Shown here in pieces: positions 16,961-62,171 of a stretch of 64,000 nucleotides of DNA. The stretch is from contig NZ_CP041352.1 in the NCBI RefSeq assembly GCF_009746125.1, positions 3,394,436 to 3,458,435 of the forward strand, read 5' to 3'. A program made the position numbers and the translations under genes. Origin of the DNA: Casimicrobium huifangae. GTDB lineage: Bacteria; Pseudomonadota; Gammaproteobacteria; Burkholderiales; Casimicrobiaceae. Within the stretch, counting starts at the first letter, position 1, and each line of letters opens with the position of its first letter. A model generated the notes under the pieces. The model did no database searches. It saw only the letters and a program-made list of their open reading frames with translations, and had not been told where the DNA came from.

Positions 16961-17261
16961 GGAAATCGTGGTGAGCGCAAAACGCGTTCAGTAAGTGACT
17001 ATGTTAGTCCGTCGCCAGACATTTCAACCGCGACAGATGCCTGCGGCGATTGCGACGAATCGTCTCGACCGGGCAATTTTGGTTATCAACTTTCCAATGA
17101 AACCCAGATTTCAATGGGCGTAAGGGCTATTTACGCCATTTATCGAGTTTAGGTTGTTTCGAGCTTCAAGCCCAATTTGAATGGGCATTTCGGCAAAAAG
17201 CTGATTGAGGCGGATTATCCGTGGCGACGCGTCGTGCGCCGCCAAACGGCACACCAATGGC
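16961..17261. other. intergenic stretch with copy F of the two-box repeat
   Basis: No gene is seen. The segment at 17143-17202 (minus strand) matches the two-box intergenic element: AGCTTTTT from 17202, GGGC about 30 nt on, and a degenerate AGTCGACT box near 17150. It should also hold the ssrA promoter. Confidence 0.5.
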
Positions 17262-18047
17262 CTAGACCCGCGACTGCGGCAGCATGTAGTTGGCCTCGGA
17301 CACGAGGTCAACGCCACAGGAGAGGTTGTCGATCCAGTCGATGAACTGGTTGCACATTGCCTTGCCTTTGAAGAACGGCCCGTGCTGCGGCACGATCATC
17401 TCGATGTCGAGCTGGCGCACCATGCGCGCCCACAGTCGGCAAACCTTGTTCGACACCATGTAGCGGCGGTGGAAGCCCTCCATGTTCGGGATGTGGCGGG
17501 CAAAGTCGGGCACTGGCTGGCCGCAGATCTTGGGCGGCATCAACGATGCGCCGAGGTCGCCCGAGAACAGGATTTTGGCGACGGGGTCGTAAAACTGGAA
17601 GTTGCCCTCCGAGTGAAGGAAGTGCGCCGGAATCACGTGCAGGCTGCTCTTGCCGAGTGGCAGGATGGCGCCCTCGTCCTTGATCGCCATGATGCGGCCC
17701 TCGGTGCTGGTGCCGGTGCAGAAGTGCGGTGCGAAGCGCGACCAGATGCTGGAAATGACCAGCTGGCAGTCGGTGCCGCCGATCCAGCGCGCGAGCGACG
17801 CAATGATGTCCGGGTCGGCATGCGAGGCGCAGACGTAGCGCAGCTTCTTCGGCGGCACATAACGCGACATGGTCATGTAGAGCGCGTGATAGGTCATGTT
17901 GCCACCCGGATCGATCAGGGCGTCATCGCCGTTGTCGACCACCAGAAACTGGTTGGCCTGCACGGCCTCTCCGGCCTCGGCAACCAGGTCAGAGAATGAA
18001 ATGCAGATGTGCTTGCCGTCGTTGTAAAGCTCGGTGGGAGCGAACAT
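17262..18047 (-). CDS. ODP-type metallo-beta-lactamase-fold protein
   Basis: The protein has 261 residues from the ATG at 18047, preceded by AAAGGAG; the open frame upstream of it is not needed. The fold matches the oxygen-binding di-iron (flavodiiron-like) branch of the MBL superfamily. Ligand motifs are SHADPDI (first metal motif with Asp in place of Glu), HFLHSEGNFQFYD, FSGDLGAS and VPQHGPFF. No flavodoxin domain is attached, so electrons must come from a separate protein. The likely role is O2 or NO sensing or reduction, or a related hydrolase. An FNR-like box lies upstream. Confidence 0.8.
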   Translation of the reverse strand: MFAPTELYNDGKHICISFSDLVAEAGEAVQANQFLVVDNGDDALIDPGGNMTYHALYMTMSRYVPPKKLRYVCASHADPDIIASLARWIGGTDCQLVISSIWSRFAPHFCTGTSTEGRIMAIKDEGAILPLGKSSLHVIPAHFLHSEGNFQFYDPVAKILFSGDLGASLMPPKICGQPVPDFARHIPNMEGFHRRYMVSNKVCRLWARMVRQLDIEMIVPQHGPFFKGKAMCNQFIDWIDNLSCGVDLVSEANYMLPQSRV

Positions 18048-18200
18048 GCGTACTCCTTTGATCGCGTGTCGATTGCGCCCACTGGTGTAGTCACCCGCCA
18101 GGACGCCGGCATGGTGCCCGGTGAGTGCCCGCCTGATGCTGGCGGCCGCCGGATGCCCAAGAATCGTCTGGGCATTGTTCCGTGTTGGCGATTTGCAGAA

Positions 18201-18214
18201 TTGACACAAGTCAA
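18201..18214 (-). promoter_or_regulatory. FNR/Dnr-like palindrome upstream of the ODP gene
   Basis: TTGACACAAGTCAA is a perfect palindrome with a 4-bp centre, close to the CRP/FNR-family consensus TTGAT-N4-ATCAA. It is about 155 bp from the ODP start codon. In a region of about 450 bp without genes (18048-18495) it is the clearest regulatory sequence on that side. Confidence 0.5.
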
Positions 18215-18322
18215 TTTTGTCCCGAGCAACCCTAAGGAAATCGTGGTTTTATTGCGATGCGACAAATTGCGCGGCATTGTCTGAGGCGGGCGACGTCACT
18301 GGCGCGCCAACGCCGGTCGGGC

Positions 18323-18328
18323 TATAAT
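18323..18328 (+). promoter_or_regulatory. -10 box of the rpsF operon promoter
   Basis: A consensus TATAAT is found 168 bp before rpsF. The -35 at the expected distance (about 18300) is weak. A long leader between this box and rpsF would leave room for ribosomal-protein feedback control. Confidence 0.5.
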
Positions 18329-18495
18329 TTATGGCTCTGCTCCACGGCAAACACGTCTTGTGTGCGGTCTGCTTTCATCCGATAGCCAGGCCATCAGCAA
18401 GGCGCCAACAACAAACGCCGGGGGTCAGTTTGAGCGGCTTTGGTTGCGTTGCAGCGAAAGCCATCCACTGTCCATAGACTGAAAGGAAATGACCC

Positions 18496-18867
18496 ATGCG
18501 TCATTACGAGATCGTCTTTATCGTCCATCCGGACCAAAGCGAGCAAGTGCCCACGATGGTCGAGCGTTATCGCTCCCTGGTGACCGGCAAGACCGGCAAG
18601 ATCCATCGTCTTGAAGATTGGGGCCGCCGCCAGCTGGCTTATCCGATCAACAAGATCTACAAGGCGCACTACGTGTGCATGAACATCGAGTGCGATCGCG
18701 ACACGCTGGTCGAGCTCGAAACCGCGTTCAAATTCAACGACGCCGTGCTGCGCCACCTGACGGTGCAGAAAGATGGCGCCGAAGTGGCTCCGTCGCCGAT
18801 GATGGCTGGCGAAAAGGCCAAGAACCTCAACACCGCTGACGCTGCCGAAGCAGCGACGGCAGCCTAA
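18496..18867 (+). CDS. rpsF: 30S ribosomal protein S6
   Basis: The protein has 123 residues, beginning [19 protein letters not shown] with the conserved [19 protein letters not shown] segment that contacts S18. The C-terminal tail is rich in Ala and Glu, as in other S6 proteins. AAAGGAAA precedes the start. It is the first gene of the rpsF-rpsR-rplI operon and is followed by rpsR after only 18 bp. Confidence 0.97.
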
Positions 18868-18885
18868 CGCACGGGAGCGCACACC

Positions 18886-19161
18886 ATGGCATTCGGCAAA
18901 CCCAAGTTCGGCCAGCGCCCCAAGCGCGATCGTCAACCGAGCCTCTTCAAGCGCAAGAAGTTCTGCCGCTTCACGGCAGCTGGCGTAAAAGAGATCGATT
19001 ACAAAGACATCGACACGCTGAAGGATTTCATCCAGGAAAACGGCAAGATCATGCCGGGCCGCGTGACGGGCACCAAGGCCCGCTACCAGCGCCAGCTCAC
19101 CACCGCAATCAAGCGCGCCCGCTTCCTGGCGCTGCTGCCGTATTGCGATCTGCACGAGTAA
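18886..19161 (+). CDS. rpsR: 30S ribosomal protein S18
   Basis: The protein has 91 residues, with the conserved core [20 protein letters not shown] and [14 protein letters not shown] followed by [12 protein letters not shown]. It binds S6 and 16S rRNA in the platform of the small subunit. The N-terminus has a basic extension. It lies between rpsF and rplI with no priB in front of it. Confidence 0.97.
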
Positions 19162-19182
19162 TCGACGGAAGGAACCCTCATC

Positions 19183-19635
19183 ATGCAAATCATCCTTCTT
19201 GAAAAAGTATTGAACGTCGGCCTGCTCGGCGACATCGTCAAGGTCAAGGACGGCTATGCCCGCAACTTCCTGATCCCGCAAGGCAAGGCCAAGCGCGCGA
19301 CCGAGAAGAACATCGCCGACCTCGCTGCCCGTCGTGCTGACCTCGAAAAGGTCGCCGCCGAGAAGCTCGCCGTGCAAACTGCACTGGGCGAAAAGCTCAA
19401 CGGCGTCGAGCTCAAGATGACGCAGAAAGCCGGCGTTGACGGCCGTCTGTTCGGCTCGGTCACCAACGTTGACGTCGCCGAAGCGCTGCGCGCCCAGGGC
19501 TACGAGGTCACCAAGTCGATGGTGTTGATGCCATCCGGCCCGATCAAGACCATCGGCGAAACCGCCGTCAAGCTGCAGTTGCACACCGATGTGACGAGCG
19601 AGATCAAGGTCATCGTGATCGCCGAAAAAGAGTAA
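19183..19635 (+). CDS. rplI: 50S ribosomal protein L9
   Basis: The protein has 150 residues, the standard L9 length. The N-terminal domain begins [21 protein letters not shown] and contains [14 protein letters not shown] long connecting helix and the C-terminal RNA-binding domain follow. AAGGAACC lies before the ATG. It is the last gene of the operon and is followed by a strong terminator. Confidence 0.97.
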
Positions 19636-19651
19636 GCCCAGGCTACTCTGC

Positions 19652-19686
19652 AAAACCCGCCTTGGGGCAACCCGGGCGGGTTTTTT
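19652..19686 (+). terminator. terminator after rplI
   Basis: A stem CCCGCC/GGCGGG is preceded by AAAA and followed by TTTTTT, 16 bp after the rplI stop. Symmetry of the A and T runs could let it act in both directions. Confidence 0.9.
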
Positions 19687-19790
19687 GTTGTCTGCTCGGC
19701 CTGGTTGATGCGAGGTTGATGTTGCACGGCGAAGCGGAGTGATTGGATGGTTGACTCCAGTTTGCGCCTCTACGCTATCCGCTGCGATGC

Positions 19791-20666
19791 GTGTGCGGCG
19801 CGGCGCGCACACGAAGACGTTGCGTCACGCACATTGCCGCTCTCCTCATCCGCCGAACTGAATTGAAGCCTTCCCTGCACCTCACGTTCTTTCACGCCAA
19901 CGGTTACCCGTCAGGCGTCTATCGCCAGTTCTTTGCGGCATTGGAGCGTCATGCACACGTCCACGCGCCTTCCGTGCTCGATAGCGCACCGGACTGTGCC
20001 GCGCATCGGCGCTGGCCGACAATGCTGGATCAGGCTCTCGGGCTGACACAGCCACGCGCGGGCAGCCGCCATGTGCTGGTCGGGCACTCGATGGGTGGCT
20101 ACCTTGCCTTGCAGGCGGCGGCACGGCACCCGGAGGCGGTCGCGGCCGTGGTGTTGATTGATTCGCCAATTCCGACCGGCTGGCGTGGCAAGCTGCTCAG
20201 CTTTTCCCAGCTCACCGGGCTCGCCTATCGTGCGGGACCCGCTCCCATCGCCGCCCGTCGGCGCGACCAGTGGCCGAGCCGCGCAGCGGCCCGCGAGTTC
20301 TTCGCTGGCAAGGCGTTCGTACAGCGCTGGGCGCCGGGTGTGCTCGACGATTTCGTTGCGCACGCCCTTGTCACCGCCGCCAATGGCGGCGTCACATTGC
20401 GCGTGCCGCGTGACACTGAACGCGACATCTATGCCTACGTCGTGCATCGCCCGGCGTTCCATGCACTGCAACGTCTCCGCCGCAAGGGGATTGCCGTGCA
20501 CTACATCGCCGGAACCCAGTCGGAAGAAACGCGCATGGCGGGCTACGCAGAAAACGAGCGGCTATTCGCGCCGCGCTTCCACGCCTTGCCGACCGGTCAT
20601 CTGATACCGATGGAAGCACCGGTCGATTGCGCCGCGCTGGTGCTCAAACTGGCGACTGCTGGCTGA
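19791..20666 (+). CDS. alpha/beta hydrolase
   Basis: The frame has 291 residues, but the start is uncertain: homologous sequence seems to begin near LTFFHANGYPSGVYRQFF, and a TTG at 19863 would give a shorter protein. The nucleophile elbow is GHSMGG, with the oxyanion segment FHANG near the N-terminus. The catalytic His is probably in TGHLIPMEAP near the end. No signal peptide is evident. The substrate is unknown. It is convergent with the MFS gene on the other strand (3 bp between stops), and no operon partner is evident. Confidence 0.85.
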   Translation: MCGAARTRRRCVTHIAALLIRRTELKPSLHLTFFHANGYPSGVYRQFFAALERHAHVHAPSVLDSAPDCAAHRRWPTMLDQALGLTQPRAGSRHVLVGHSMGGYLALQAAARHPEAVAAVVLIDSPIPTGWRGKLLSFSQLTGLAYRAGPAPIAARRRDQWPSRAAAREFFAGKAFVQRWAPGVLDDFVAHALVTAANGGVTLRVPRDTERDIYAYVVHRPAFHALQRLRRKGIAVHYIAGTQSEETRMAGYAENERLFAPRFHALPTGHLIPMEAPVDCAALVLKLATAG

Positions 20667-20669
20667 TCT

Positions 20670-22181
20670 TCAGTCCGCCGAAGGTGGCGCTGGCGTGGCC
20701 CGCTCGCGCAACTGCCACGCAGCAATGATCGCCACCGCACAGATCCCGGCAACCACGCAAAACACTTCATCGAAGGCATCAAGGCGCGCGCTGCTGGTTG
20801 CCAGTGCGGTCAACGAATCGCCATGCGCGGCCAGCCGCCATTCCAGCAGGATGCCGCAGAGACTGACACCGATCGCACCGCCCAGCATGCGCATGAAGTT
20901 GATCACGCTGGCACCCTGCGGAATCAACGCCCGATCAACGCCGCGCATCGAGCCAAGGTTGAGCGACGGCAGGATGAAGCCGAGGCCGATACGCCCAATG
21001 ATCGCCCAGGCAACCAGAACGAACAGGCTGGTCGTCGTGTTGACCGTCACCATCAGCGCAAAAGAGCTGGCCAGCAGCAGCAGGCCGATGCTGACCAGCC
21101 GGTGCGCGGGCTGGTGATCTGCCAGCCGCCCGACCAGTGCAATGGTGCCGGCCAGAATGAATCCGGCCGGCAGCAGGATGGTGCCGACATAGGAGGGCGA
21201 GAGCACAAGGCCCCGCTGCATGAACACCGGCAGCAGATAGGTCGAGCCGAACAGCGCGGTGCCGTAAATGAAGGCGACCACCGTGCCCATCGCAAACTGG
21301 CGATAGCCGAACAGATCGAAGCTCATCAGCGGCGCAGCAGCACCACGGGTCGCGCCAGCGGTCGTGTTGCCCGCACGGGCAATACGGCGCTCCCACCACA
21401 CAAAACCGGCGCAGGACAGCGTTGCAATCACGAGCAACCCGCCGGCCAGCAAGGGCGCACCATCATGCAAGTGAACCAGCCCGTTCAGCAGGCTCAGCGT
21501 GCCGGCCGTTGCCAGCAGCAGTCCGATCCAGTCCAGCGGCGCGCCGCCCCGATCAGCTGCCACACCGCCGGGCGCAGTAATCGGCACAAATTTGTAGGCC
21601 AGCCACATGGACACTACGCAAAACGGCGCCACCATGAAAAAAATGGAGCGCCAGCCAAACCAGTCGACCAGCACACCGCCGATGCTAGGACCAATCGCCG
21701 GTGCCAGCACCACGCCCATGCCAAAGATGCCGCTGGCGCGGCCCTGCTCGTTCTGCGCAAACGCGCGCAGGATGATGATGGCCGGGATGGGCTGTACCAC
21801 CCCGGCGGCGAGCCCTTCGCAGGCGCGGGCCACCAGCACCAAGCCAAAGTGATTGGAAAAGCCGCCGCCGATGCCGCCCAGCAGCAACAGCCACATGCAG
21901 ATCAAGTAGGTCTGGCGGTAACCGAAGCGTGCCAGCAACCACGGCGTGGTCAGCATCGACACGGTCATCGCCGCCATGAAGCCGGAGCTCACCCAGTGCG
22001 CGCGATCCTGCCCTAGCGCAAAGTGCTGGCTCATGTCGGGGATGGCGACGTTGACAATCGTCGACGACATCACCGACGCCATGGTGCCAATCATCAGCGA
22101 AAGCAGCAACAGCCAGCGGTGACGCTCGCCGTAGCGCGCCTGCAGCGCGGCCAGCGACCCGGGAACAACGGGATCAGTCAT
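20670..22181 (-). CDS. DHA2-family MFS drug/efflux transporter (EmrB/QacA type)
   Basis: The protein has 503 residues and about 14 hydrophobic segments, the DHA2 topology. Motif C is clear in GVVLAPAIGPSIGGVLVDWFGW, and the first helix contains the family pattern TIVNVAIPDMS. No membrane-fusion partner (EmrA) is beside it, so it may work alone as an inner-membrane proton antiporter. The start at 22181 gives a 20-residue cytoplasmic lead. Substrate is unknown. Confidence 0.9.
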   Translation of the reverse strand: MTDPVVPGSLAALQARYGERHRWLLLLSLMIGTMASVMSSTIVNVAIPDMSQHFALGQDRAHWVSSGFMAAMTVSMLTTPWLLARFGYRQTYLICMWLLLLGGIGGGFSNHFGLVLVARACEGLAAGVVQPIPAIIILRAFAQNEQGRASGIFGMGVVLAPAIGPSIGGVLVDWFGWRSIFFMVAPFCVVSMWLAYKFVPITAPGGVAADRGGAPLDWIGLLLATAGTLSLLNGLVHLHDGAPLLAGGLLVIATLSCAGFVWWERRIARAGNTTAGATRGAAAPLMSFDLFGYRQFAMGTVVAFIYGTALFGSTYLLPVFMQRGLVLSPSYVGTILLPAGFILAGTIALVGRLADHQPAHRLVSIGLLLLASSFALMVTVNTTTSLFVLVAWAIIGRIGLGFILPSLNLGSMRGVDRALIPQGASVINFMRMLGGAIGVSLCGILLEWRLAAHGDSLTALATSSARLDAFDEVFCVVAGICAVAIIAAWQLRERATPAPPSAD

Positions 22182-22339
22182 GCGGGCAGTTTACTTGCCG
22201 GCGCTGTCCTGCCATGACCACGCTGTGGTGAGGGGCACATCTTGTCCCCCGCCCGTGTCGCCGCTTCATGTCCGCTTCATGGCGGCCCCATAAAATCAGG
22301 AGTTCTGCAGTCGCCAGCGCCTTCCCGGGCGCCCTCCTC

Positions 22340-26150: not shown

Positions 26151-26163
26151 CGTCGTTTCCGGC

Positions 26164-28536: not shown

Positions 28537-28543
28537 GCGACGC

Positions 28544-30761: not shown

Positions 30762-30771
30762 CTGCTGCTAC

Positions 30772-30841
30772 ATCTTTCTGCTGAAGTGCCCATCTGCATT
30801 GGACTATGAGCTGCATATTGGCAAAAGTCGACTTTTGCCAA
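30772..30841 (+). repeat. two-box intergenic element, copy A, with 24-bp palindrome
   Basis: The element begins ATCTTTCTGC 11 bp after the stop of the outer-membrane protein gene, has TTGGAC about 30 nt on, and ends at AGTCGACT (30826-30833). Here the second box is inside a perfect 24-bp palindrome with arms TTGGCAAAAGTC and GACTTTTGCCAA (30818-30841). Confidence 0.65.
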
Positions 30842-30896
30842 AATCATGTCGGAGACCTTGTTCAAGATTGCCTTCCTGAAAAAGGTAATGACGTAA

Positions 30897-42325: not shown

Positions 42326-42359
42326 ACGCGGATCGCTCGTGGCGTTCTGTCGGGCAAGC

Positions 42360-42421
42360 AGCTTTTTCGTAAAAGTGCCTACCGATATGGGCTCCATGGC
42401 AAAAAGTACCAACAGTCGACT
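42360..42421 (+). repeat. two-box intergenic element, copy B
   Basis: AGCTTTTTCG begins 34 bp after the DUF1841 stop, TGGGC follows about 29 nt on, and AGTCGACT ends at 42421, with a 54-nt distance between box starts. The next gene is the first RCC1 gene. Confidence 0.65.
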
Positions 42422-42536
42422 TAACCGCTTTTTGCGCTGCTAGCCCTTATTGAATAAGGTTTACAGCGAAAAGATGATGCTGTAACGAACCGTCTGCCAA
42501 TGCGGTTTTGACCCGGTTTTTCCCGGCTGCGCTTTG

Positions 42537-43958
42537 ATGGGTATCGGATCTTCTTTCCGGCCACCCATGACGCCTTTCTACCCATCGTTCAACGCCCGCC
42601 GCCTGCTACGTCACTTGCTGGCGGTGCTGGCGACACTGCTGCTCGCGGGCAGCATCGGCGCGCCCATCGCGCAGCCCTACACGCAAATCGCCACTGGCGA
42701 ATATCACACCTGCGCCCTGCTCGACAGCGGCGGCGTGCACTGCTGGGGCGATAACTTTCGCGGTCAGCTCGGCAACGGCATATCCGGCAACGGGCAGGAA
42801 TCACCGGAACCGGTCCGCGTGGCCGGCCTCAACACCGCCGTGCACATTGCCGCCGGTACATCGCACAACTGCGCTGCGCTGCGCGATGGCCGGGTGCAGT
42901 GCTGGGGCTACAACTTTCGTGGCCAGCTCGGCAATGGCGGCACCACCCCAAGCAGTACACCAGTGCTGGTGGGCACGGTGACCGACGCCATCGCCGTGGC
43001 CGCCGGGGGCGATCACAGCTGCGCGCTGCGCCAGGGCGGCGGCATCAAGTGCTGGGGCTACAACGGCGACGGCGAGCTGGGCCATGGCGGTAGCGACTTC
43101 TATCTCACCAACCCGGTTGACGTGGCTGGCATCACCACCGCCACGGCGATCAGCGCCAGGCACCTGCACACCTGCGCCCTGCTCGCCAGCAATACAGTCA
43201 AGTGCTGGGGCCGCAACAGCGACGGCCAGCTTGGCGACGGCAGCTACGTTTCGCCGCGGCGGACGCCGGTTGACGTGCAAAGTCTCACCAACGTCAGCCA
43301 GATCGCCGCTGGCTGGCTGCACACCTGCGCTGCACTGGTCTCGGGCGGTGTCGTGTGCTGGGGCAGCAATACCTACGGCATGCTGGGCACCGGCAACACC
43401 ACGGCCAGCAACACCTGGGTGAACGCCTATCCGACATTGACCAGCGTGACGGCCATTGCCGCCGGCGAACAGCACAGTTGCGCAGTTCGCCAGGCCGCCG
43501 GGCGCATCGAATGCTGGGGCTACAACGGCAACGGACGACTGGGCTACGGCACGATCGTCGGCACCGGCATCACCGTTGGCACGGCGAAAGTGCTTGGCAA
43601 CGACAACTTCGTCAGTGTCAGCGCCGGACGCACCCACACCTGCGCCCTCACCGCGGCCGGCAGTGCCAAGTGCTGGGGGGCCAATGGTGCCGGGCAAATT
43701 GGCACCACCCACTTCGCGACTGGTGGTGACGATCACGCGGTGCCACAGTTTGTCGCGCCGCGTTGCGAGCTTGATATCGACGGCGATGGCATCTTCTCTG
43801 CGGCCACCGACGGTGTGCTGGCGGCACGTGCCCTGGCTGGCATGAGCGGCAGCGCGGTCACCGCAGGCGCCATTGGCGGCGGGGCAACGCGCACCAGCTG
43901 GCCACAGATTCGCAACTTCCTGATTCGCGCCTGTGGCGTCGCGGGGCTCGCACCATGA
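42537..43958 (+). CDS. secreted RCC1-repeat beta-propeller protein, first of a pair
   Basis: The protein has about 473 residues from the ATG at 42537; an ATG at 42567 is equally likely. A signal peptide (HLLAVLATLLLAGSIGAP) is followed by seven RCC1-like repeats of the form GxxHxCAL...xCWGxNxxGQLG, each with a Cys pair that could form a disulfide, giving a seven-bladed propeller. A C-terminal domain of about 75 residues begins CELDIDGDGIFSAATDG, a dockerin- or EF-hand-like calcium loop. The stop overlaps the next gene by ATGA. A secreted ligand-binding or scaffold role is likely; the ligand is unknown. Confidence 0.9.
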   Translation: MGIGSSFRPPMTPFYPSFNARRLLRHLLAVLATLLLAGSIGAPIAQPYTQIATGEYHTCALLDSGGVHCWGDNFRGQLGNGISGNGQESPEPVRVAGLNTAVHIAAGTSHNCAALRDGRVQCWGYNFRGQLGNGGTTPSSTPVLVGTVTDAIAVAAGGDHSCALRQGGGIKCWGYNGDGELGHGGSDFYLTNPVDVAGITTATAISARHLHTCALLASNTVKCWGRNSDGQLGDGSYVSPRRTPVDVQSLTNVSQIAAGWLHTCAALVSGGVVCWGSNTYGMLGTGNTTASNTWVNAYPTLTSVTAIAAGEQHSCAVRQAAGRIECWGYNGNGRLGYGTIVGTGITVGTAKVLGNDNFVSVSAGRTHTCALTAAGSAKCWGANGAGQIGTTHFATGGDDHAVPQFVAPRCELDIDGDGIFSAATDGVLAARALAGMSGSAVTAGAIGGGATRTSWPQIRNFLIRACGVAGLAP

Positions 43959-49098: not shown

Positions 49099-49175
49099 GC
49101 AGGCAGCATAGCGCAAGGTATTGGCTTTTTATGGAAATCCTTATCTAATCAGGGCTCGCACGACGTTTGACGTAC

Positions 49176-49247
49176 AGTCGACTATGTTGCAAATTTCTAT
49201 CAATGCCCTTTTTGTAAGCGGTCTCCAGGCCTATTTTTACGAAAGCT
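49176..49247 (-). repeat. two-box intergenic element, copy D
   Basis: On the minus strand the first box, AGCTTTCG, starts at 49247 inside the last codons of yggU, GGGC follows, and AGTCGACT ends at 49176. The spacing from GGGC to the second box (25 nt) equals that of the other copies, while the first part is 10 nt longer. Confidence 0.5.
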
Positions 49248-49554
49248 GCTTCTGCACAAACGCCAGCGTGACACCTTGCACGGCAACGCGTTTGTGACGG
49301 TTCAGTTCGCCTGCAATCAGCGCGACGCGGTTTTTGGCAACGCCGCAGCGCTCCGCCACGAAAGCGATCACCGCAGCGTTCGCCTTGCCCTCCACCGGTG
49401 GCGCGTTGATGCGCAGTTTCAGCGCGCCATCATGTTCACCCGCGACTTCAGATTTCTTCGCGCCGGGCTGCACGTAGAGCGTGATTTCAACGCCATCAGC
49501 AGTTGCCTTCAGCCACACTGGCAACGCCGACGATGCTGGCTCCGGCGTCGCCAC
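49237..49554 (-). CDS. yggU: YggU family protein (DUF167)
   Basis: The protein has 105 residues from a GTG at 49554 that shares a base with the proC stop. The conserved DUF167 core is LYVQPGAKKSEVAGEHDGALKLRINAPPVEGKAN followed by AAVIAFVAERCGV. The family is small and its role is unknown; it often follows proC, as here. The gene is the last of yggS-proC-yggU. Confidence 0.9.
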   Translation of the reverse strand: MATPEPASSALPVWLKATADGVEITLYVQPGAKKSEVAGEHDGALKLRINAPPVEGKANAAVIAFVAERCGVAKNRVALIAGELNRHKRVAVQGVTLAFVQKQLS

Positions 49555-51099: not shown

Positions 51100-51199
51100 A
51101 ATGCCAATGTCACAGTCACAACTCGATTGAAGAGCGTCGCGGTCCGTATCCAGTCACTGCAACGTTGCAGGGCGCTCAACGGGGCAAAGGATTATAGGG

Positions 51200-52240: not shown

Positions 52241-52286
52241 TCCCACCGCAACGTCGCCCCGAGCCCGCTGACAGGAAAGCCATCTT

Positions 52287-53426: not shown

Positions 53427-53433
53427 CGCAGTC

Positions 53434-53495
53434 AGCTTTTTCGCGAAAGCCGCATCTACGTTGGGCACTGCCGGTCATTTCGGCATAAATCGACT
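53434..53495 (+). repeat. two-box intergenic element, copy C
   Basis: AGCTTTTTCGCGAAAGCCGC starts 8 bp after the pilU stop, TTGGGC follows about 29 nt on, and AATCGACT (one mismatch to the consensus second box) ends at 53495, 54 nt between box starts. Confidence 0.6.
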
Positions 53496-53582
53496 ATTGG
53501 TGGAAACGATGCTTCTGCCCATAGCCATTGCGGCTTCCAGCAAGAAGCCATAGGGCCTTCGCCCTCCGCGTAGCATCTCGTC

Positions 53583-54494: not shown

Positions 54495-54521
54495 CGGCAT
54501 CACTTCCGAAGGACACGACCG

Positions 54522-55662: not shown

Positions 55663-55743
55663 CCCTGTACTTTCACCCCTTGTGATTTTTCGGACAAATC
55701 CGCATATTGCGCCTATGCGTTGATGTTTTTTAGAGGAGGACGC

Positions 55744-56655: not shown

Positions 56656-56672
56656 CGCCAGCACTGCTCCGC

Positions 56673-56702
56673 AAAAAAGCCGGCCTCGCGCCGGCTTTTT
56701 TT
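56673..56702 (+). terminator. terminator after the Tim44-like gene
   Basis: AAAAAAGCCGGC-ctcgc-GCCGGCTTTTTTT, 20 bp after the stop. The stem and A/T runs are symmetric. ubiJ begins about 50 bp later. Confidence 0.9.
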
Positions 56703-56753
56703 GTGCCCGACATCCGTAGCGCAGGTCACCGTGCAGTTTGCGACAATTACGCC

Positions 56754-57332
56754 ATGATTCCCGCCTCGCTGATCGCCCGTGCCCTCTCCCGTCTGCTCTC
56801 GCATGACGACGCTGCCCGCAAGCTGCTGGCGGCGCATCGCGGCGAGACCTTGCAGGTGCGCACGCCACCATTCGCGCTGACGCTTCGCGTCACCGATGCT
56901 GGTGATTTCGCTGCCGTTGAGGGTCCTGCCGGCGACAACGACGTGTCGTGCAGCGTCGAATTCCCGCTCACCTCGCTGCCGCTGCTGGCACAGGGCAAGG
57001 AGGCCGCTCTGCGCAGCGCCAAAGTCGCCGGCAAGGCGGCGCTGTTGCAGGATGTGTCGAAAGCCTTTTCGTCACTGCCGCTGGCCGCCGAGGCCGAGCT
57101 TGAACGTGTGGTCGGGCCGATTCTCGCCAACGAAGCCGTGCGCTTCCTGCGCGCGCTGAAAGCGCTGGGCGACAACGCGCGGGCGAGCCTGCACGAAGCC
57201 GGCAAGCGTTACCTGCATGACGAAGCGCAACTGGTCGCCGAGCGCGACGATGTCGCGAAATTCGCCGCTGATATCCAGCGCCTGCGCATAGACGTGCAGC
57301 GCCTGCAGGCACGCGTCGCAAAGCTCGCCTGA
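56754..57332 (+). CDS. ubiJ: SCP2-domain ubiquinone biosynthesis accessory protein UbiJ
   Basis: The protein has 192 residues from the ATG at 56754. An SCP2-type lipid-binding domain (residues about 15-110, with FALTLRVTDAGDFAAVEGPA) is followed by helices and a C-terminal coiled coil (DDVAKFAADIQRLRIDVQRL). UbiJ binds quinone intermediates in the soluble Ubi complex. ubiB, which commonly follows, is absent: the next gene is convergent. Confidence 0.88.
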   Translation: MIPASLIARALSRLLSHDDAARKLLAAHRGETLQVRTPPFALTLRVTDAGDFAAVEGPAGDNDVSCSVEFPLTSLPLLAQGKEAALRSAKVAGKAALLQDVSKAFSSLPLAAEAELERVVGPILANEAVRFLRALKALGDNARASLHEAGKRYLHDEAQLVAERDDVAKFAADIQRLRIDVQRLQARVAKLA

Positions 57333-57334
57333 GG

Positions 57335-57886
57335 TCAGACCTTTTCCGCAGGCATTTCGAACACCAGACAGGTCGTTGACGCGTGCGCGTACAGCGTGCC
57401 ATCGGCACCATACAGACGGCCTTCTGCGGTAGCCGTTTGCCGCCCCACATGCACGGTGTAGCCTTCGGCCCGCACCAGCGGCACCTTTAGCGAGATCCCC
57501 TTGACGATGTTGAGCTTGAGCTCCAGCGTGGTATAGGCACGCCCGATTGGCATGGCGGTGTGCACGGCGCAGCCGACTGCTGAATCCAGCAGCGTTGCGT
57601 ACCAGCCGCCGTGCACGGTGCCCATCGGGTTCAGCAGGCGCGGTGATGGCTTGCCCTGAAAGATCGCGCGACCGTGCGCCACTTCGATCAGCGCAAAGTC
57701 CAGCGTCTCCGAGATCGGGGGCGCCGGCGCCTTGCCATCAAGCAGCAACTGCATCTGCTGCAAGCCAGTCAGACCCGCCATCTGCTCGCGTGTGGCAACG
57801 CCGCGACCAAAGATGCGCGCACGCACCGCCGCCTCTTCGTCCTGCCAGCGTTTGAGGGTTGCTTCTGCACTTGCATCCTGCTTCAT
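57335..57886 (-). CDS. PaaI-like acyl-CoA thioesterase (hotdog fold)
   Basis: The protein has 183 residues from the ATG at 57886, with AGGTGAG upstream; an ATG at 57907 is also possible. The hotdog core is LDFALIEVAHGRAIFQGKP and HGGWYATLLDSAVGCAVHTAM, followed by GRAYTTLELKLNIVKG, typical of the PaaI family. It probably hydrolyses an acyl-CoA. It is divergent from marR, with AT-rich repeats between, and convergent with ubiJ (2 bp between stops). Confidence 0.88.
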   Translation of the reverse strand: MKQDASAEATLKRWQDEEAAVRARIFGRGVATREQMAGLTGLQQMQLLLDGKAPAPPISETLDFALIEVAHGRAIFQGKPSPRLLNPMGTVHGGWYATLLDSAVGCAVHTAMPIGRAYTTLELKLNIVKGISLKVPLVRAEGYTVHVGRQTATAEGRLYGADGTLYAHASTTCLVFEMPAEKV

Positions 57887-57918
57887 GAACTCACCTTGCT
57901 TTTCCATCGCAATCAATT

Positions 57919-57943
57919 GCAGATACAATTATTGCATATACAA
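57919..57943. promoter_or_regulatory. probable MarR operator between thioesterase and marR
   Basis: Two direct repeats, GCAGATACAA and GCATATACAA, begin 15 bp apart in an AT-rich intergenic region, within a longer imperfect palindrome (TTGCAGATACAA and TTGCATATACAA). Such short AT-rich sites between marR and a divergent gene are usual operators. Confidence 0.6.
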
Positions 57944-57963
57944 CATTGTGCCGATGTAACAAC

Positions 57964-58419
57964 ATGACGACAGACCAGCCTCGCGGCTGCACCAATTTCA
58001 AGTTGCGGCAACTGCTGCGGCGAGTTTCGCTGGTGTATGACCACGCGATGGCGGAGTGCGGGCTGAAAATCACCCAGTATTCGCTGCTGACCCATGTTGA
58101 TCGCCTCGGGCCGATCACGCAGGCCGATCTGGCGCGGGCGATGGCGATGGATTCGTCCACCCTGTCGCGCAACCTGAAGCCGCTGCAGACCGCCGGCTGG
58201 GTTGCCGTTCGCGCAGGGGACGACGCACGCAGCAACGCACTGGCGCTCACCGCCGCCGGGCGGCGCAAACGCAGCGAAGCGCAGGGACTTTGGAAGAAGG
58301 CGCAGTTGCAATTGAACGACACCGTCGGCGTGGACGATGTGATCGCGCTGCACGCACTGATTGATCGCATGAGCGAGGCGCTCGCCAATGACACCACTGA
58401 CGACAGGAACGCAGCATGA
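57964..58419 (+). CDS. MarR-family transcriptional regulator
   Basis: The protein has 151 residues from the ATG at 57964. The winged helix contains QYSLLTHVDRLGPITQADLARAMAMDSSTLSRNLKPLQTAGW and the wing DDARSNALALTAAGRRK. It is coupled by an ATGA overlap to the MFS gene and divergent from the thioesterase, so it probably represses both and responds to an aromatic or acyl ligand. The ligand is not known. Confidence 0.9.
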   Translation: MTTDQPRGCTNFKLRQLLRRVSLVYDHAMAECGLKITQYSLLTHVDRLGPITQADLARAMAMDSSTLSRNLKPLQTAGWVAVRAGDDARSNALALTAAGRRKRSEAQGLWKKAQLQLNDTVGVDDVIALHALIDRMSEALANDTTDDRNAA

Positions 58420-59657
58420 GTAACACCGCATCCCGATACGCCGTCTGGATGATTCTGCTTGCTGCCGCAGGCACTTTTGCACTGACGATGGGCACCCGGC
58501 AGACGATGGGTCTCTTTCTGTCCGACGTCAACTCCGCCACCGGCCTGGGCATCGCCAACATCAGCCTGGCCTTTGCCTTTGGCCAGCTCTGGTGGGGGCT
58601 CACGCAGCCCTTCGCCGGTGCGTTCGCCGACCGCGTCGGTGCCGGACGCGTGCTGTTGATCGGCGTGAGTCTGGTCGCGCTCGGCACCATCCTGACGCCA
58701 CTGATGACCAGCACCGCCGGGCTCGTGTTTGCAATCGGCGTGCTCGCTGCGGGCGGCGCCGGCATGGCCGGGCCTTCCGTGCTGATGGCAGCGACGACAC
58801 GCATGCTGCCAGCAGAAAGACGCGGAATGGCAACCGGCATTGTCAACGCTGGCGGTTCATTCGGGCAGTTCATCATGGCGCCAGTCGCCGCGGGCCTCAC
58901 CGCCGCGCTGGGCTGGATGACATCGATGCAGGTGCTCGGGCTGATCGTGCTGCTGGCGCTTCCGGCAGCGTGGGTGTTGCGTGGCAACTCGTCAGCTGCA
59001 GCGACCTCGGCACCCGCGGGTGTCGCAGGCGGCCCTGCGCCCGCGCGCGAAGGCACGCGTGCTGCGATCACCCGCGCACTTGCTGATCCGAGCTACCGGC
59101 TGCTCGCCTGCGGTTTTTTCGTCTGCGGCTTCCACGTGGCCTTCCTCGCAACGCACTTGCCGAATGTGGTGGCGATGTGCGGCCTGCCGCCTTCGGTGAG
59201 CGCGTGGTCGCTTGGATTGCTCGGGCTGTTCAACATCGTCGGCAGCCTCACGATGGGCTGGGCGGTGGGCCGCTGGCGGATGAAGTCGCTGTTGTCGCTG
59301 GTCTACGCCGCGCGCGCCGTCGCGGTGCTGGTGTTCCTGCTGTCGCCCAAGACGGCGACGACGATGCTCATCTTCGCCGCCGTCATGGGGCTCACCTACC
59401 TGTCAACGGTGCCGCCCACGGCAGGTCTGGTTGCCAAGTTCTTCGGCCCCGCCAACATGGCCACCCTGTTCGGCATCGTCATGCTGTCGCACCAGATCGG
59501 CGGCTTCACCGGTGCGTGGCTGGGCGGCAAGGTCTTCACCATGACTGGCAGCTACGACACCATCTGGATCATCGACATCCTGCTCGCCGTCGGCGCCGCG
59601 CTGGTGCACATGCCGATCAAGGAGGCGGCGTTGCCGCCGAAGGTGCAGCCGGCGTAG
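58416..59657 (+). CDS. MFS transporter, monocarboxylate/oxalate-like
   Basis: The protein has 413 residues and about 12 membrane helices. Family motifs include FGQLWWGLTQPFAGAFADRVGAGRVLLIG between helices 2 and 3 and MLPAERRGMATGIVNAGGSFGQF in the first half. The pattern fits the monocarboxylate/oxalate-formate branch of the MFS. It overlaps marR by ATGA, so the two form an operon, and the divergent thioesterase suggests transport of an organic acid. Substrate is unknown. Confidence 0.9.
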   Translation: MSNTASRYAVWMILLAAAGTFALTMGTRQTMGLFLSDVNSATGLGIANISLAFAFGQLWWGLTQPFAGAFADRVGAGRVLLIGVSLVALGTILTPLMTSTAGLVFAIGVLAAGGAGMAGPSVLMAATTRMLPAERRGMATGIVNAGGSFGQFIMAPVAAGLTAALGWMTSMQVLGLIVLLALPAAWVLRGNSSAAATSAPAGVAGGPAPAREGTRAAITRALADPSYRLLACGFFVCGFHVAFLATHLPNVVAMCGLPPSVSAWSLGLLGLFNIVGSLTMGWAVGRWRMKSLLSLVYAARAVAVLVFLLSPKTATTMLIFAAVMGLTYLSTVPPTAGLVAKFFGPANMATLFGIVMLSHQIGGFTGAWLGGKVFTMTGSYDTIWIIDILLAVGAALVHMPIKEAALPPKVQPA

Positions 59658-59685
59658 GTTGCGCCTTCAGCGCACTTCAGGGACA

Positions 59686-59765
59686 GTAGCCTCGATGGAA
59701 CAACGTGGAATCGAGGAAGCTGGCATCGGCGAACCCTCGATTCCGCTTCGCTGCATCGAGGCTAC
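59686..59765. repeat. palindromic extragenic repeat (nested)
   Basis: Outer arms GTAGCCTCGATG (59686-59697) and CATCGAGGCTAC (59754-59765) enclose inner arms GGAATCGAGG (59707-59716) and CCTCGATTCC (59735-59744), all perfect. The layout is that of REP-like palindromic elements found widely in proteobacteria. It sits between convergent genes. Confidence 0.85.
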
Positions 59766-60199
59766 GGCACTGCCTTCGGACTACCGACGATCAACCGAAA
59801 CGTTATTGCTATCGCAATTCCGCAGACAAGGCCCAAGACCAACATCGCGAGGCATTCCTGAACTGCACTCAAAACGCCGTATTTGCGGCCGTCGCGAAGT
59901 GCAACACACACGAGCACAACCGCCATCAGGAACGGCACAATAGAACCGAGCGCAGCCCCATAAAGCAAGACTCGCGTCCAGCTAACGGCGCCGCGCTCGG
60001 TCGCGTTTCGCCATGCTGGCAACGCCAAAAAGAACATTGTTGGGTACGCGACAACCACCATAACCCACAGTGCAGAAAACATCCCCGCCTGGTCGCCGTA
60101 TTGGCCGACATAAAGCAGAACCGCAAACACTGGCAGTACCGCAAGTGGGCTAACCCACGCCGCATAGAACTCGCGGCGCGTAGCGGTCAAACGCTGCAT
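59762..60199 (-). CDS. small integral membrane protein
   Basis: The protein has 145 residues from the ATG at 60199; an ATG four codons earlier is possible. Four membrane helices are visible (AVLPVFAVLLYVG, VMVVVAYPTMFFLALPAW, LYGAALGSIVPFLMAVVLVCV and CLAMLVLGLVCGIAIAITF). No family recognised. The C-terminus overlaps the edge of the palindromic repeat, and the gene is isolated, so its end may have been rearranged. Confidence 0.55.
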   Translation of the reverse strand: MQRLTATRREFYAAWVSPLAVLPVFAVLLYVGQYGDQAGMFSALWVMVVVAYPTMFFLALPAWRNATERGAVSWTRVLLYGAALGSIVPFLMAVVLVCVALRDGRKYGVLSAVQECLAMLVLGLVCGIAIAITFRLIVGSPKAVP

Positions 60200-60224
60200 T
60201 GCAACGAGCAAACTTGAAAACGTC

Positions 60225-60325
60225 TAGCGCGTAGCGAGCGGCCCGAGGTCTAGGCGGAGGGCGACGCCGCGTACTCATGTACGCAAGGAGCCCTCCAACG
60301 ACGAGATCGGGCCGCGCAGTAGCGC
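60225..60325. repeat. large structured palindrome at the 3' end of the TPR gene
   Basis: Three nested stems: GCGGCCCGA/TCGGGCCGC (60238-60246 and 60307-60315), GGAGGGC/GCCCTCC (60256-60262 and 60290-60296) and GCGTAC/GTACGC (60269-60274 and 60279-60284) with a TCAT loop. Direct TAGCGC repeats flank it (60225-60230 and 60320-60325). It fills the gap between two minus-strand genes. Confidence 0.75.
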
Positions 60326-60326
60326 T

Positions 60327-61112
60327 TTACTCCATCTCCGCCTTGGCCGCCTCGATATCCAGACACTCCATCGCATCCTTCGGCTCACAGGCTGCTGCTT
60401 CCGCGTAGAGCTTCTCGACGTCCTTCATCTTCTTGTCGCCGAACAGCTTGTAGAGACCGTCGGCCATTTCAGTGCGGGCGATGGCGGAGTCGGGGTTGAG
60501 CTTCAGGGCTTTGTCGTAGTTCTCGACCGCCGCTTCCTTGCTGACGCCGTAGGTCATCTTGCCGATCATGCTGCCGACTTTTTCGATGACTTCGGCGTTG
60601 AAGGTGCCGAGCGCGATGTGCGCGTCGGCGTGTTTCGGTTCCAGCTTGATCGCGGTGTTGAGCGCGGCGCTGACCTTGCCGCCAATGCCTTGCGTGAGCG
60701 CCTTGGCAACGCCGATCAACTGGCCGTAGCGACCAAGCGCGTAGGCGGCGAGGTAGTAGGCGTTGGCGTTCTTCTTCTGCGCGGCTTGCAGCTCTTCGCA
60801 CCGGGCGGCGATTTCTTCGTACGCCTTCTGCTTTTTGGCGTCGCTGGTTTCGAGATAGTTGTTGTAGATGCACGCGGCCTTGTTGGCGGCGTTGTAGCCG
60901 TCAAGCCCGGCAGCGAGCCCCGCCTCATACGCTCCCTGAAAATCACCGGCGTGATATAGACGCCACGCTTCCTCGACGGCTTTGTCAGCAGGGAACGGTT
61001 CAGCATCGCCCTTGTGCAGACGTGCCCAGTTTTTCTTCAGTGCAGCACCGTCGTAGACGAATGCGCTGTTGTCGTGCGGGAATGCGGTCCAGCCGCCTTT
61101 TTTGGTTGCCAT
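60327..61112 (-). CDS. TPR-repeat protein
   Basis: The protein has 261 residues with no signal peptide. It begins MATKKGGWTAFPHDNSAFVYDG and has TPR-like helices such as AAVENYDKALKLNPDSAIARTEMADGLYKLFG and AIKLEPKHADAHIALGTFNAE. The ATG has AAAGGAAAA upstream. It is probably a cytoplasmic or periplasm-facing adaptor. No specific function is recognised. A copy of the GGACGAAGG repeat sits immediately in front of its ribosome-binding site, so its promoter may lie in or beyond that repeat. Confidence 0.85.
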   Translation of the reverse strand: MATKKGGWTAFPHDNSAFVYDGAALKKNWARLHKGDAEPFPADKAVEEAWRLYHAGDFQGAYEAGLAAGLDGYNAANKAACIYNNYLETSDAKKQKAYEEIAARCEELQAAQKKNANAYYLAAYALGRYGQLIGVAKALTQGIGGKVSAALNTAIKLEPKHADAHIALGTFNAEVIEKVGSMIGKMTYGVSKEAAVENYDKALKLNPDSAIARTEMADGLYKLFGDKKMKDVEKLYAEAAACEPKDAMECLDIEAAKAEME

Positions 61113-61135
61113 GGTGGTGTTTTCCTTTGGAAAAC

Positions 61136-61274
61136 AGGACGAAGGACGAAGGACGACGGCCTGTGGGCCTAGGACGCAAAGGCATGCAGCCGCGACCGCC
61201 CGGAATGGGGAAGGCAGTCTGCATAGCTTTGCGTCCTAGCGACCAACGGGAGCGTCGTCATTCGTCATTCGTCC
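61136..61274. repeat. dispersed inverted-repeat element, copy 2 (GGACGAAGG arms)
   Basis: Left arm AGGACGAAGGACGAAGGACG, a small GGCCTGTGGGCC hairpin, then TAGGACGCAAAGGCATGCA. The right arm on the other strand reads AGGACGAATGACGAATGACG, then CTAGGACGCAAAGCTATGCA. The same blocks in the same order occur at 41717-41877. It separates the TPR and TetR genes. Confidence 0.8.
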
Positions 61275-61282
61275 TGACTTTG

Positions 61283-61963
61283 TTAACGATACTCCGACGC
61301 CAGTTTCTCAAACAGCAACCGTGCGTCACCCTGCAGATACGGCGCCAGCAGCACCATGACCTGAAACACGCCGTGGCCCATCGCTTCGGCTTCGTCGAGC
61401 TTGCGCGGGTTCATCACATACGAATACGAGTGCCAGTAGGTGGCGAGCATGACGAGGTTGGTCGCGACGGCGCGAATTTCGCCGTCGGTAGCCTTGAGCT
61501 GGTTGATCGAACGCATTTCGTTCATCAGCCGCTCCGTGTTCTTCTGCGCGTTCTGCAGGATGGTCTTGAAGTGCGTCTCGATGATGCGGTTCTTCGACAG
61601 CAGGTCATTCAAATCGCGATAGATGAAGCGGTACTTCCAGATTTTTTCGAACAGCAGATGCAGCCAGAACCAAGTGTCTTCCACGTTCGCCGGACGGTCC
61701 TTGCCCATCGCGAAGAGCTCGTCAAGCTCGCGCTCGAACTGCGCGAAGATCTTGGTGACGATCTCGTCCTTGCTGCGGTAGTGGTAGTAGAGATTGCCGG
61801 GCGAGATGTTCATCTCGTCGGCGATGGCATTGGTCGTGACGTTCGGCTCACCGAACGAATTGAACATGCCGAGCGACACTTCGAGAATGCGCTCCTTGGT
61901 GCGGCGGGGGGCCTTACGTTCCATAGCGGCTCGTGCCTCCGGCTCCATCGCGGCTATCGTCAT
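61283..61963 (-). CDS. TetR/AcrR-family regulator
   Basis: The protein has 226 residues. The helix-turn-helix is RTKERILEVSLGMFNSFGEPNVTTNAIADEMNISPGNLYYHYRSKDEI. The ligand domain contains FEKIWKYRFIYRDLNDLLSKN. The start at 61963 gives a 20-residue lead; a later ATG (MERKAPRR) is possible. A two-box repeat sits upstream. Phasin and patatin genes lie close by, so control of lipid or polyhydroxyalkanoate metabolism is plausible but not shown. Confidence 0.9.
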   Translation of the reverse strand: MTIAAMEPEARAAMERKAPRRTKERILEVSLGMFNSFGEPNVTTNAIADEMNISPGNLYYHYRSKDEIVTKIFAQFERELDELFAMGKDRPANVEDTWFWLHLLFEKIWKYRFIYRDLNDLLSKNRIIETHFKTILQNAQKNTERLMNEMRSINQLKATDGEIRAVATNLVMLATYWHSYSYVMNPRKLDEAEAMGHGVFQVMVLLAPYLQGDARLLFEKLASEYR

Positions 61964-62110
61964 CCGGCTCCATGCGTTTCTCCGTCCTTTTTCTCTTCCT
62001 CTACAGCTATTGTCGGAGAACCTTTGCAGAGTGGCAACAATTTAGAGTAAGTCGATCGTCTTTTGCGTGAAAAGACAGCCACGCAAGGCATGCGAGCACA
62101 AAACGCCTGA

Positions 62111-62171
62111 AGTCGACTTCAAGCCAAATTCAGCCTAATGCCCTTTGCTGACGCCATTTCTGAAAAAAGCT
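62111..62171 (-). repeat. two-box intergenic element, copy E
   Basis: On the minus strand AGCTTTTTTC starts at 62171, a few bases after the patatin stop, AGGGC follows about 28 nt on, and AGTCGACT ends at 62111, 53 nt between box starts. The second box lies in a 14-bp palindrome TGAAGTCGACTTCA. Confidence 0.65.

What the first reader, a model, noticed from the sequence alone, without database searches (positions are those of the whole stretch)
17143..62171. Family of two-box intergenic elements with fixed 53-54 nt spacing
Six spacers contain the same module, read in the direction of the flanking genes: A (30772), B (42360), C (53434), D (49247, minus), E (62171, minus), F (17202, minus). The first box is AGCTTTTT(C/G), often followed by GAAA. 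A (T/A)GGGC box comes about 29 nt later. An AGTCGACT-like box starts 53-54 nt after the first in A, B, C, E and F; D has 10 extra nt in the first half only, and its GGGC-to-second-box distance is 25 nt as in B. In A, B, D and E the second box is an exact AGTCGACT, an 8-mer expected about once in 64 kb. Most copies start within about 60 nt of a stop codon and precede another gene on the same strand. GCCCA and TGGGC could pair as a small hairpin. This looks like an undescribed dispersed repeat or a shared regulatory/RNA-processing module.
Basis: seen in the sequence. Interest (0 to 1): 0.7.

Follow-up and report, generated by a model that had tools for sequence, protein, structure and literature searches.

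The report
Spaced mirror-image DNA sites between genes
This bacterium's chromosome carries roughly 400 mirror-symmetric DNA sites of about 120 base pairs, lying between genes and rarely close together, which evolution seems to have kept in place while their filler sequence changed, so they look like anchor points for an unknown protein rather than ordinary jumping DNA.

Summary
The six copies are real. The two boxes are the left end and centre of one ~122-bp element of dyad symmetry: CAGCTTTTT..GAAA..GGGCT..AATTT..GTCGAC..and the mirror half. The window holds six, each matching on both strands. In 824 kb of own DNA there are 74 copies (about 400 per genome), all matching both strands, none centred in a called gene. 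It is not an RNA hairpin family: arms of one copy are no more alike than arms of different copies. No recent copying: no two of 75 copies exceed 67% identity. In a relative whose 4-fold sites are 60% identical, 17 of 19 placeable sites keep an element, fillers near saturation; simulated neutral decay leaves 0.3% recognisable. Copies avoid each other: 2 of 58 spacings under 4 kb against about 14 expected. Best explanation: dyad protein-docking sites under purifying selection, probably organising the chromosome or its supercoiling. The binder is unknown; gyrase is possible but weakly supported.

The parts
30770..30892 (.). copy A: whole dyad element, downstream of an alginate-export-like gene, upstream of glnA
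42357..42481 (.). copy B: whole dyad element, between a DUF1841 gene and an RCC1-repeat gene
   Evidence: copy at the same place in G011. G013 has one copy between the genes that flank B and D, which could be either
53431..53554 (.). copy C: whole dyad element, between a pilT/pilU-family gene and an EamA transporter gene
   Evidence: copies at the same place in G011, G013 and G015
49117..49250 (.). copy D: whole dyad element with about 10 extra nt in one half, upstream of an ECF sigma factor gene
   Evidence: copy at the same place in G011
62053..62174 (.). copy E: whole dyad element, downstream of a patatin-like gene
   Evidence: copies at the same place in G011 and G013
17082..17205 (.). copy F: whole dyad element, between an ODP-family metallo-beta-lactamase-fold gene and the tmRNA gene
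30826..30833 (.). centre of A, AGTCGACT
42414..42421 (.). centre of B, AGTCGACT
53488..53495 (.). centre of C, AATCGACT
   Evidence: counted on the sequence
49176..49183 (.). centre of D, AGTCGACT
62111..62118 (.). centre of E, AGTCGACT
17141..17148 (.). centre of F, ACTCGATA on the minus strand
   Evidence: counted on the sequence

Best explanation
Each copy is a double-stranded docking site of about 122 bp for a two-fold symmetric protein complex. Base-specific boxes (CTTTT at about 53 bp, GGGC at about 27 bp and TCGA at the dyad) and AT-only positions at 13-14 bp are contacted at fixed distances; the fillers between them are free to change. The roughly 400 sites, about 11-12 kb apart and rarely within 4 kb of each other, most likely act together as anchors of chromosome organisation or supercoil domains, so that one site per domain is enough and a second one nearby is not kept. 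Shown: symmetry, fixed spacing, intergenic restriction and spacing regularity in this genome, lack of orientation preference, retention at orthologous sites beyond neutral expectation, variants of the same geometry elsewhere in the genus. Inferred: that a protein binds, that it is one complex, and that the function is chromosome architecture or topology.
For: Symmetry and boxes: (74 of 74 match both strands). In the 75 of 97 copies that could be centred on TCGA, positions 13 and 14 from the dyad are 99% A/T with A and T about equal, as expected for minor-groove or shape readout (general knowledge). dsDNA, not RNA. Selection: 17 of 19 placeable G000 sites have an element at the same place in G011 (17 of the 36 copies examined could not be placed by both flanks; two of the 17 G011 partners are weak or interrupted); conserved columns 0.77 identical, filler columns 0.44, against 0.69 and 0.31 for non-orthologous copies (16 pairs); 4-fold sites 0.600 identical (46,873 sites); simulated neutral decay to 0.6 identity leaves 0.3% at or above 25 bits. 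Few intermediate relics: of 107 own places listed at E<=10, 97 are at or above 25 bits, 0 lie at 15-25 and 10 are below 15. Spacing: 59 copies in 720 kb contiguous DNA, CV 0.62 against 0.92-0.98, 2 of 58 spacings under 4 kb against 13.6-15.1 expected, 0 of 4000 null draws as low; in separate DNA (0-1.41 Mb) 3 of 84 against 18.0, CV 0.83 against 0.99, P 0.05. Orientation: tandem 36, convergent 18, divergent 14 of 68, against shares of .56/.18/.26 by intergenic bases. Same geometry with a drifted consensus in G006 and in 12 of 17 genus genomes by model R1 or R2. For scale, E. coli is described as having 400-500 supercoiled domains (PMC3820752, start of abstract in listing).
Against: No binding protein was found. 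Five of 17 genus genomes have few or no copies with either model (G003, G007, G008, G012, G016), so the system is not essential to the genus. In G006, 8 of 41 matches are centred inside called genes and some lie 0.3-1.1 kb apart (stretches mostly chosen around hits), and in G011 the spacing signal is weaker (2 of 21 spacings under 4 kb against 4.9, P 0.07), so neither the intergenic rule nor the exclusion rule is shown genus-wide. Orthologous copies differ in patches, e.g. one quarter 0.96 identical beside others near 0.5, and the longest exact words shared between own copies (22 nt) exceed column-shuffled copies (17-20 nt), which hints at local exchange or replacement. One site (G011 C79:99652) has no copy in G000, and one G000 site has only a decayed remnant in G011, so gains or losses happen. 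Placing sites by both flanks favours conserved neighbourhoods. The sample is incomplete and leaves out four coding-like positions (50807, 364856, 837302, 1108303), judged by eye.
Confidence: 0.45

Rival explanations
1. Old non-autonomous mobile element (MITE- or ERIC-like). A past burst of insertion, with cis immunity against inserting near an existing copy, placed the elements in intergenic DNA; transposase-binding needs or repair from other copies keep the boxes intact.
For: Inverted ends and intergenic placement as in MITEs; placement roughly proportional to intergenic length in all orientations; avoidance under 4 kb could be target immunity; one G011 copy is absent in G000; patchwise divergence of orthologous copies; shared words slightly longer than in column-shuffled copies.
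Against: No two of 75 copies exceed 67% identity (centred, ungapped) and the longest shared exact word is 22 nt, so no recent copying; 17 of 19 placeable sites are shared with G011 at near-saturated neutral divergence; boxes are kept while fillers are lost; the one empty site viewed shows no clean target duplication; 0 viral contigs match a 20-base element pattern that fits 17 of 68 copies.
Confidence: 0.22
2. The sites are strong DNA gyrase (or topoisomerase IV) docking sites: DNA is wrapped around the enzyme over about 120-130 bp with cleavage at the central 4 bp (TCGA).
For: Length, two-fold symmetry, a central 4-bp unit and alternating AT/GC preference resemble the 130-bp symmetric E. coli gyrase motif (PMC6379681, passages). 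The AT/GC profile scanned over phage Mu has its local maximum within +-12 positions exactly at the centre of the annotated gyrase cut site (17879/17880).
Against: That Mu position ranks only 1879th of 36,594. The AT/GC period is about 7.5 bp in the arms and 9.75 bp overall, with 7.75 nearly as strong, not 10.75. Gyrase motifs are degenerate, whereas here GG of GGGC is 98% conserved. The family was found in one genus only, although gyrase is general.
Confidence: 0.13
3. REPIN-like sequence population spread by a REP-associated tyrosine transposase (RAYT).
For: Two inverted half-elements each with a small internal palindrome; hundreds of intergenic copies; Y1_Tnp-family genes in 15 of 17 genus genomes.
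Against: The arms of a copy do not form a better hairpin than arms of different copies; no two copies close to a common master sequence; at 7 Y1_Tnp loci in 3 genomes, 6 elements lie 2.5-4.2 kb from the gene in 5 loci and none in the other two; at an eighth locus (G006, L279) the nearest copy is about 1.8 kb away; the ninth fetched (G002, L280) was not scanned; G008 has 11 places at E<=0.01 and no Y1_Tnp match.
Confidence: 0.06
4. Regulatory or RNA module (terminator, mRNA processing or stability element) acting on neighbouring transcripts.
For: Nearer to the upstream stop than to the downstream start in 27 of 36 same-strand pairs.
Against: Also present between divergent genes (14 of 68); no covariation; no Rfam family at its gathering score at any of the six copies.
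Confidence: 0.06

Closest known systems
ERIC / IRU (enterobacterial repetitive intergenic consensus)
   Same: About 120-127 bp, intergenic, inverted-repeat organisation, many copies (PMC2229807, passages).
   Different: ERIC is described there as a MITE-type element with terminal inverted repeats, target duplication with TA termini and stem-loop transcripts; here copies share only boxes and spacing, arms do not covary, and sites are kept at orthologous places. No ERIC sequence was compared directly.
REPIN / REP-RAYT
   Same: Two inverted halves, variable filler, hundreds of intergenic copies (PMC8049555, passages).
   Different: No hairpin conservation, no master sequence, no flanking RAYT at the loci examined.
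E. coli gyrase motif, Mu strong gyrase site, BIME-2
   Same: About 130 bp, symmetric, AT/GC alternation, intergenic in the case of BIME-2 (PMC6379681, passages).
   Different: Strictly conserved boxes, different period, found in one genus.
Correia/NEMIS, RUP and other bacterial MITEs
   Same: Small elements with inverted ends (PMC2229807, passages).
   Different: RUP, for one, is described there as highly conserved and probably still mobile; here no recent copying is seen.

Membership tests
ERIC / bacterial MITE | inverted repeat ends, about 100-200 bp, mostly intergenic | tested here: met
   (symmetry at consensus level)
ERIC / bacterial MITE | long stem-loop in the transcript or single strand, kept as such | tested here: not met
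   single copies fold at z -0.28 to -2.88 against shuffles
ERIC / bacterial MITE | target-site duplication / precise empty sites | tested here: inconclusive
   one G011-only copy viewed, no clean duplication; C site differs in length across species without clear junctions
ERIC / bacterial MITE | copies homologous along their whole length with signs of recent copying | tested here: not met
   75 copies, best pair 67%, mean 49%, centred and ungapped
ERIC / bacterial MITE | autonomous parent with the same ends | not tested
   only Y1_Tnp genes were looked at
REPIN / RAYT | hairpin formed by the two inverted halves | tested here: not met
REPIN / RAYT | RAYT gene flanked by the element | tested here: not met
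   8 of 9 fetched loci scanned, nearest copy 1.8 kb away; G008 lacks the gene
REPIN / RAYT | population around a master sequence | tested here: not met
gyrase strong site | about 130-bp two-fold symmetric site centred on a 4-bp cut | tested here: inconclusive
   length and symmetry fit; cutting not testable
gyrase strong site | 10.75-bp AT/GC period in the arms | tested here: not met
   arm period 7.5 bp, overall 9.75 bp
gyrase strong site | cleaved by gyrase in living cells | not testable with these tools
   needs Topo-Seq

The most novel reading that the evidence does not exclude
A genus has evolved its own sequence-specific chromosome-domain system: about 400 dyad sites of 122 bp, one per roughly 11 kb, bound by a dedicated complex whose recognition sequence drifts between species together with all its sites while the geometry stays fixed.
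Probability: 0.3. Interest if true: 0.85.

Novelty: new variant of a known kind. Interest (0 to 1): 0.62.

Why it matters
Short interspersed repeats in bacteria are usually treated as selfish or decaying DNA. Here single sites appear to be kept by selection long after neutral sequence has been scrambled, and copies are spread out along the chromosome. If a protein binds them, this would give a sequence-addressable set of candidate domain anchors in a bacterium, so the question of what sets bacterial supercoil domains could be tested by deleting single sites.

Tried and rejected
RNA structure: RNAalifold, covariation over all column pairs, arm-pairing and quarter-hairpin tests; rejected except for weak quarter self-complementarity. 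REPIN/RAYT; rejected. Gyrase wrapping via AT/GC profile, Fourier and Mu scan (papers PMC6379681 and PMC12393610, passages); left as a weak rival. Whole-intergenic global alignments between G000 and G011 were useless: unrelated intergenics also align at 0.67. Named relatives: 80 loci (1.41 Mb; isolates and MAGs) around pilU-like genes held no copy at E<=1 with the own-genome profile. A first guess at pattern spacings failed and a strict pattern matched none of the 58 loci then held. Pfam and NCBIfam scans gave context only. Literature: searches (0 papers; titles and abstract starts; one search was for domain numbers) listed nothing that describes this family in the held library; this is not proof of absence. 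Rows dropped: 22 of 97 copies could not be centred on TCGA and are absent from the position profile, which therefore overstates the centre, and; 1 of 17 ortholog pairs was dropped; the reciprocal listing includes gaps over 1 kb that I do not count as orthologous; one coding-like G006 match (L261) was left out of the G006 profile; four coding-like positions were left out. The sample includes the window and DNA syntenic to G011 contigs that had shown hits; the 20 evenly spaced stretches alone hold 38 copies in 400 kb.
Full report
Reading the window directly gives the six copies at the stated coordinates, AGTCGACT exactly four times in the window and only in copies A, B, D and E, and box distances of 54 (A, B, C, F), 53 (E) and 64 (D). 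A sequence-only covariance model of the six copies gives 12 matches in the window at E<=10: the same six places, each on both strands. So the two boxes are the left end and the centre of one dyad-symmetric element of about 122 bp, not a directional module.

Genome-wide, AGTCGACT occurs 161 times against 38 for the reversed word; GGGC-N22/23-TCGA-N22/23-GCCC occurs 233 times against 3 for the reversed pattern. The model search of the whole genome scored 150 of 985 first-look candidates (its limit), and all 150 matched at E<1e-8. For counts that do not depend on that limit I took stretches: 20 evenly spaced ones plus the window hold 44 copies in 464 kb, 38 of them in the 400 kb of evenly spaced DNA; with further contiguous DNA there are 74 copies in 824 kb, all 74 hit on both strands, none centred in a called gene at a coding fraction of 0.857, hence about 400 per genome. 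Gene calls come from a simple codon-usage caller of my own, not from a curated annotation.

Anatomy. In 68 own-genome copies the consensus is ATCAGCTTTTTnnTGAAAnnCCCATTnnAnnnGGGCTnnnnnnnnnATTnnnCCnAAAGTCGACTTTnnGCnAATTnnnnCnnTnAGCCC...TTTCAnCnAAAAGCTG, with CTTTT, GGGC, GTCGACT and the mirror boxes near-invariant and much of the rest close to random. Spacings are fixed. Centring 75 of 97 copies on TCGA shows AT-only positions at 13-14 bp from the dyad, 99% A/T with A and T about equal; the other 22 copies did not pass the centring rule, so the centre itself is overstated there.

It is not a hairpin. RNAalifold predicts no pair on the six copies; single copies fold at z -0.28 to -2.88 against shuffles. 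Over 13,205 column pairs the best covariation z is 3.8, about what that many tests give by chance. The left arm of a copy is no more similar to its own right arm than to the right arm of another copy (26.51 against 26.55 of 60 positions). The outer quarter around CCC..GGG is slightly more self-complementary than a column shuffle (4.75 against 4.34 pairs). The symmetry is therefore a property of the motif, as in a site read by a symmetric protein complex.

It is not recently mobile. Among 75 copies the best pair is 67% identical and the mean is 49% (centred, ungapped); the longest exact shared word is 22 nt, slightly more than in column-shuffled copies (17-20 nt). Y1_Tnp genes (REP-associated transposase family) occur in 15 of 17 genus genomes. 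At seven such loci in three genomes, six elements lie 2.5-4.2 kb from the gene and none flanks it; at an eighth, in G006, the nearest copy is about 1.8 kb away; a ninth (G002) was fetched but not scanned. G008 has 11 places at E<=0.01 and no such gene. No viral contig matches a 20-base element pattern, which itself fits only 17 of 68 copies.

It is kept in place. G011 is a genus member with a pilU-like protein 96% identical. Around that gene, all four window copies in reach (B, C, D, E) have a copy at the same place in G011. In 400 kb of syntenic DNA, 19 of 36 G000 copies could be placed by both flanks, and 17 of those 19 have an element in G011, two of them weak or interrupted; one of the two misses shows a decayed remnant. 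Four-fold sites are 0.600 identical between the two genomes (46,873 sites in 245 genes). In 16 centred ortholog pairs, conserved columns are 0.77 identical and filler columns 0.44, against 0.69 and 0.31 between non-orthologous copies. If copies decayed neutrally to 0.6 identity, 0.3% would still reach 25 bits. Scores of own copies show a gap: of 107 places listed at E<=10, 97 reach 25 bits, none lies between 15 and 25, and 10 lie below 15. This argues for purifying selection on the boxes at single sites, or for some active upkeep; the patchwise divergence of some pairs leaves room for the latter.

Placement. Of 68 copies with both neighbours called, 36 lie between same-strand genes, 18 between convergent and 14 between divergent genes, near the shares of intergenic bases (.56/.18/.26). 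Between same-strand genes they sit closer to the upstream stop (median 32 nt) than to the downstream start (89 nt), 25 of 36 within 60 nt of the stop and 12 of 36 within 60 nt of the start. Along 720 kb of contiguous chromosome, 59 copies have mean spacing 12.3 kb and CV 0.62; drawing the same number of intergenic slots gives CV 0.92-0.95 and 13.6-15.1 spacings under 4 kb, against 2 of 58 observed (0 of 4000 draws as low). In separate DNA (0-1.41 Mb; union of incomplete lists, four coding-like positions left out), 3 of 84 spacings are under 4 kb against 18.0 for uniform placement, CV 0.83 against 0.99. In G011 the trend is weaker (2 of 21 against 4.9, P 0.07). In G006 it is not seen: 41 matches in 232 kb of stretches mostly chosen around hits, some 0.3-1.1 kb apart and 8 of 41 centred in called genes.

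Distribution. With the model from this genome, 7 of 17 genus genomes give 82 or more matches (87 is the scoring limit; matches count each strand) and none of 7 same-family and 16 same-order genomes gives any at E<=0.001. G006 carries a drifted version: CAGCTT near 59-54, GCCCAATTnAATTGGGC at 42-26, AT at 14 and TTTCGAAA at the centre. A model built from 21 G006 copies finds the family also in G002, G009, G010 and G014, so 12 of 17 genomes are rich by one model or the other, while G003, G007, G008, G012 and G016 have few or none; again 0 of 23 outside the genus. In both searches only the best 87-88 candidates per genome were scored, so an absence means none among those. Eighty named loci of Beta- and Gammaproteobacteria and MAGs (1.41 Mb) have none with the own-genome profile.

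Mechanism. A two-fold symmetric complex reading boxes at fixed distances, with fillers free, explains symmetry, spacing and the pattern of conservation. Lack of orientation preference speaks against termination, promotion or RNA processing. Avoidance of close pairs suggests either a long-range function in which one site per several kb suffices, or old insertion immunity; retention at near-saturated divergence favours the former. The number (about 400) and mean spacing (11-12 kb) are of the order given for E. coli supercoil domains (400-500; PMC3820752, start of abstract in listing), which is suggestive only. The 130-bp E. coli gyrase motif (PMC6379681, passages) is similar in length and symmetry; my AT/GC profile peaks locally at the annotated Mu gyrase cut site but ranks it 1879th of 36,594, and the arm period is 7.5 bp rather than 10.75, so gyrase is a possible but weak candidate. 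Species-specific differences in topoisomerase cleavage preference have been reported (PMC12324340, abstract and outline). The binder remains unidentified.

Novelty. Small intergenic inverted-repeat families (ERIC, REPIN, Correia, RUP; PMC2229807 and PMC8049555, passages) are a known kind. This one differs in being conserved as boxes plus geometry only, at orthologous sites, with mutual avoidance in this genome.

Noticed in passing
L003, about G000:34271-34286: A parS-like sequence TGTTTCACGTGAAACA (motif recalled) next to an AGTCGACT that does not look like part of an element; probably origin-proximal.
   Followed up: no
window 16571-16960 and 17082-17205: tmRNA gene with copy F between it and an ODP-family metallo-beta-lactamase-fold gene.
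   Followed up: no
G011 C79:196042-196393: One G011 site appears as two partial matches about 190 nt apart; the G000 counterpart is a single element, so the G011 copy may be interrupted.
   Followed up: no
G011 C79:99652-99798: A copy in G011 with no element at the matching place in G000 (57 nt between the mapped flanks): a gain or loss case without a clean target duplication.
   Followed up: partly
ortholog pairs (X242465, Y29322, Y53246): Segments nearly identical beside segments close to chance level: patchwise replacement inside elements.
   Followed up: partly
window 42534-43958: RCC1-repeat (beta-propeller) protein gene downstream of copy B.
   Followed up: no
window 3854-3897: Weak partial match to one end of the element (15.9 bits, 12.7), perhaps a lone half or chance.
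   Followed up: no
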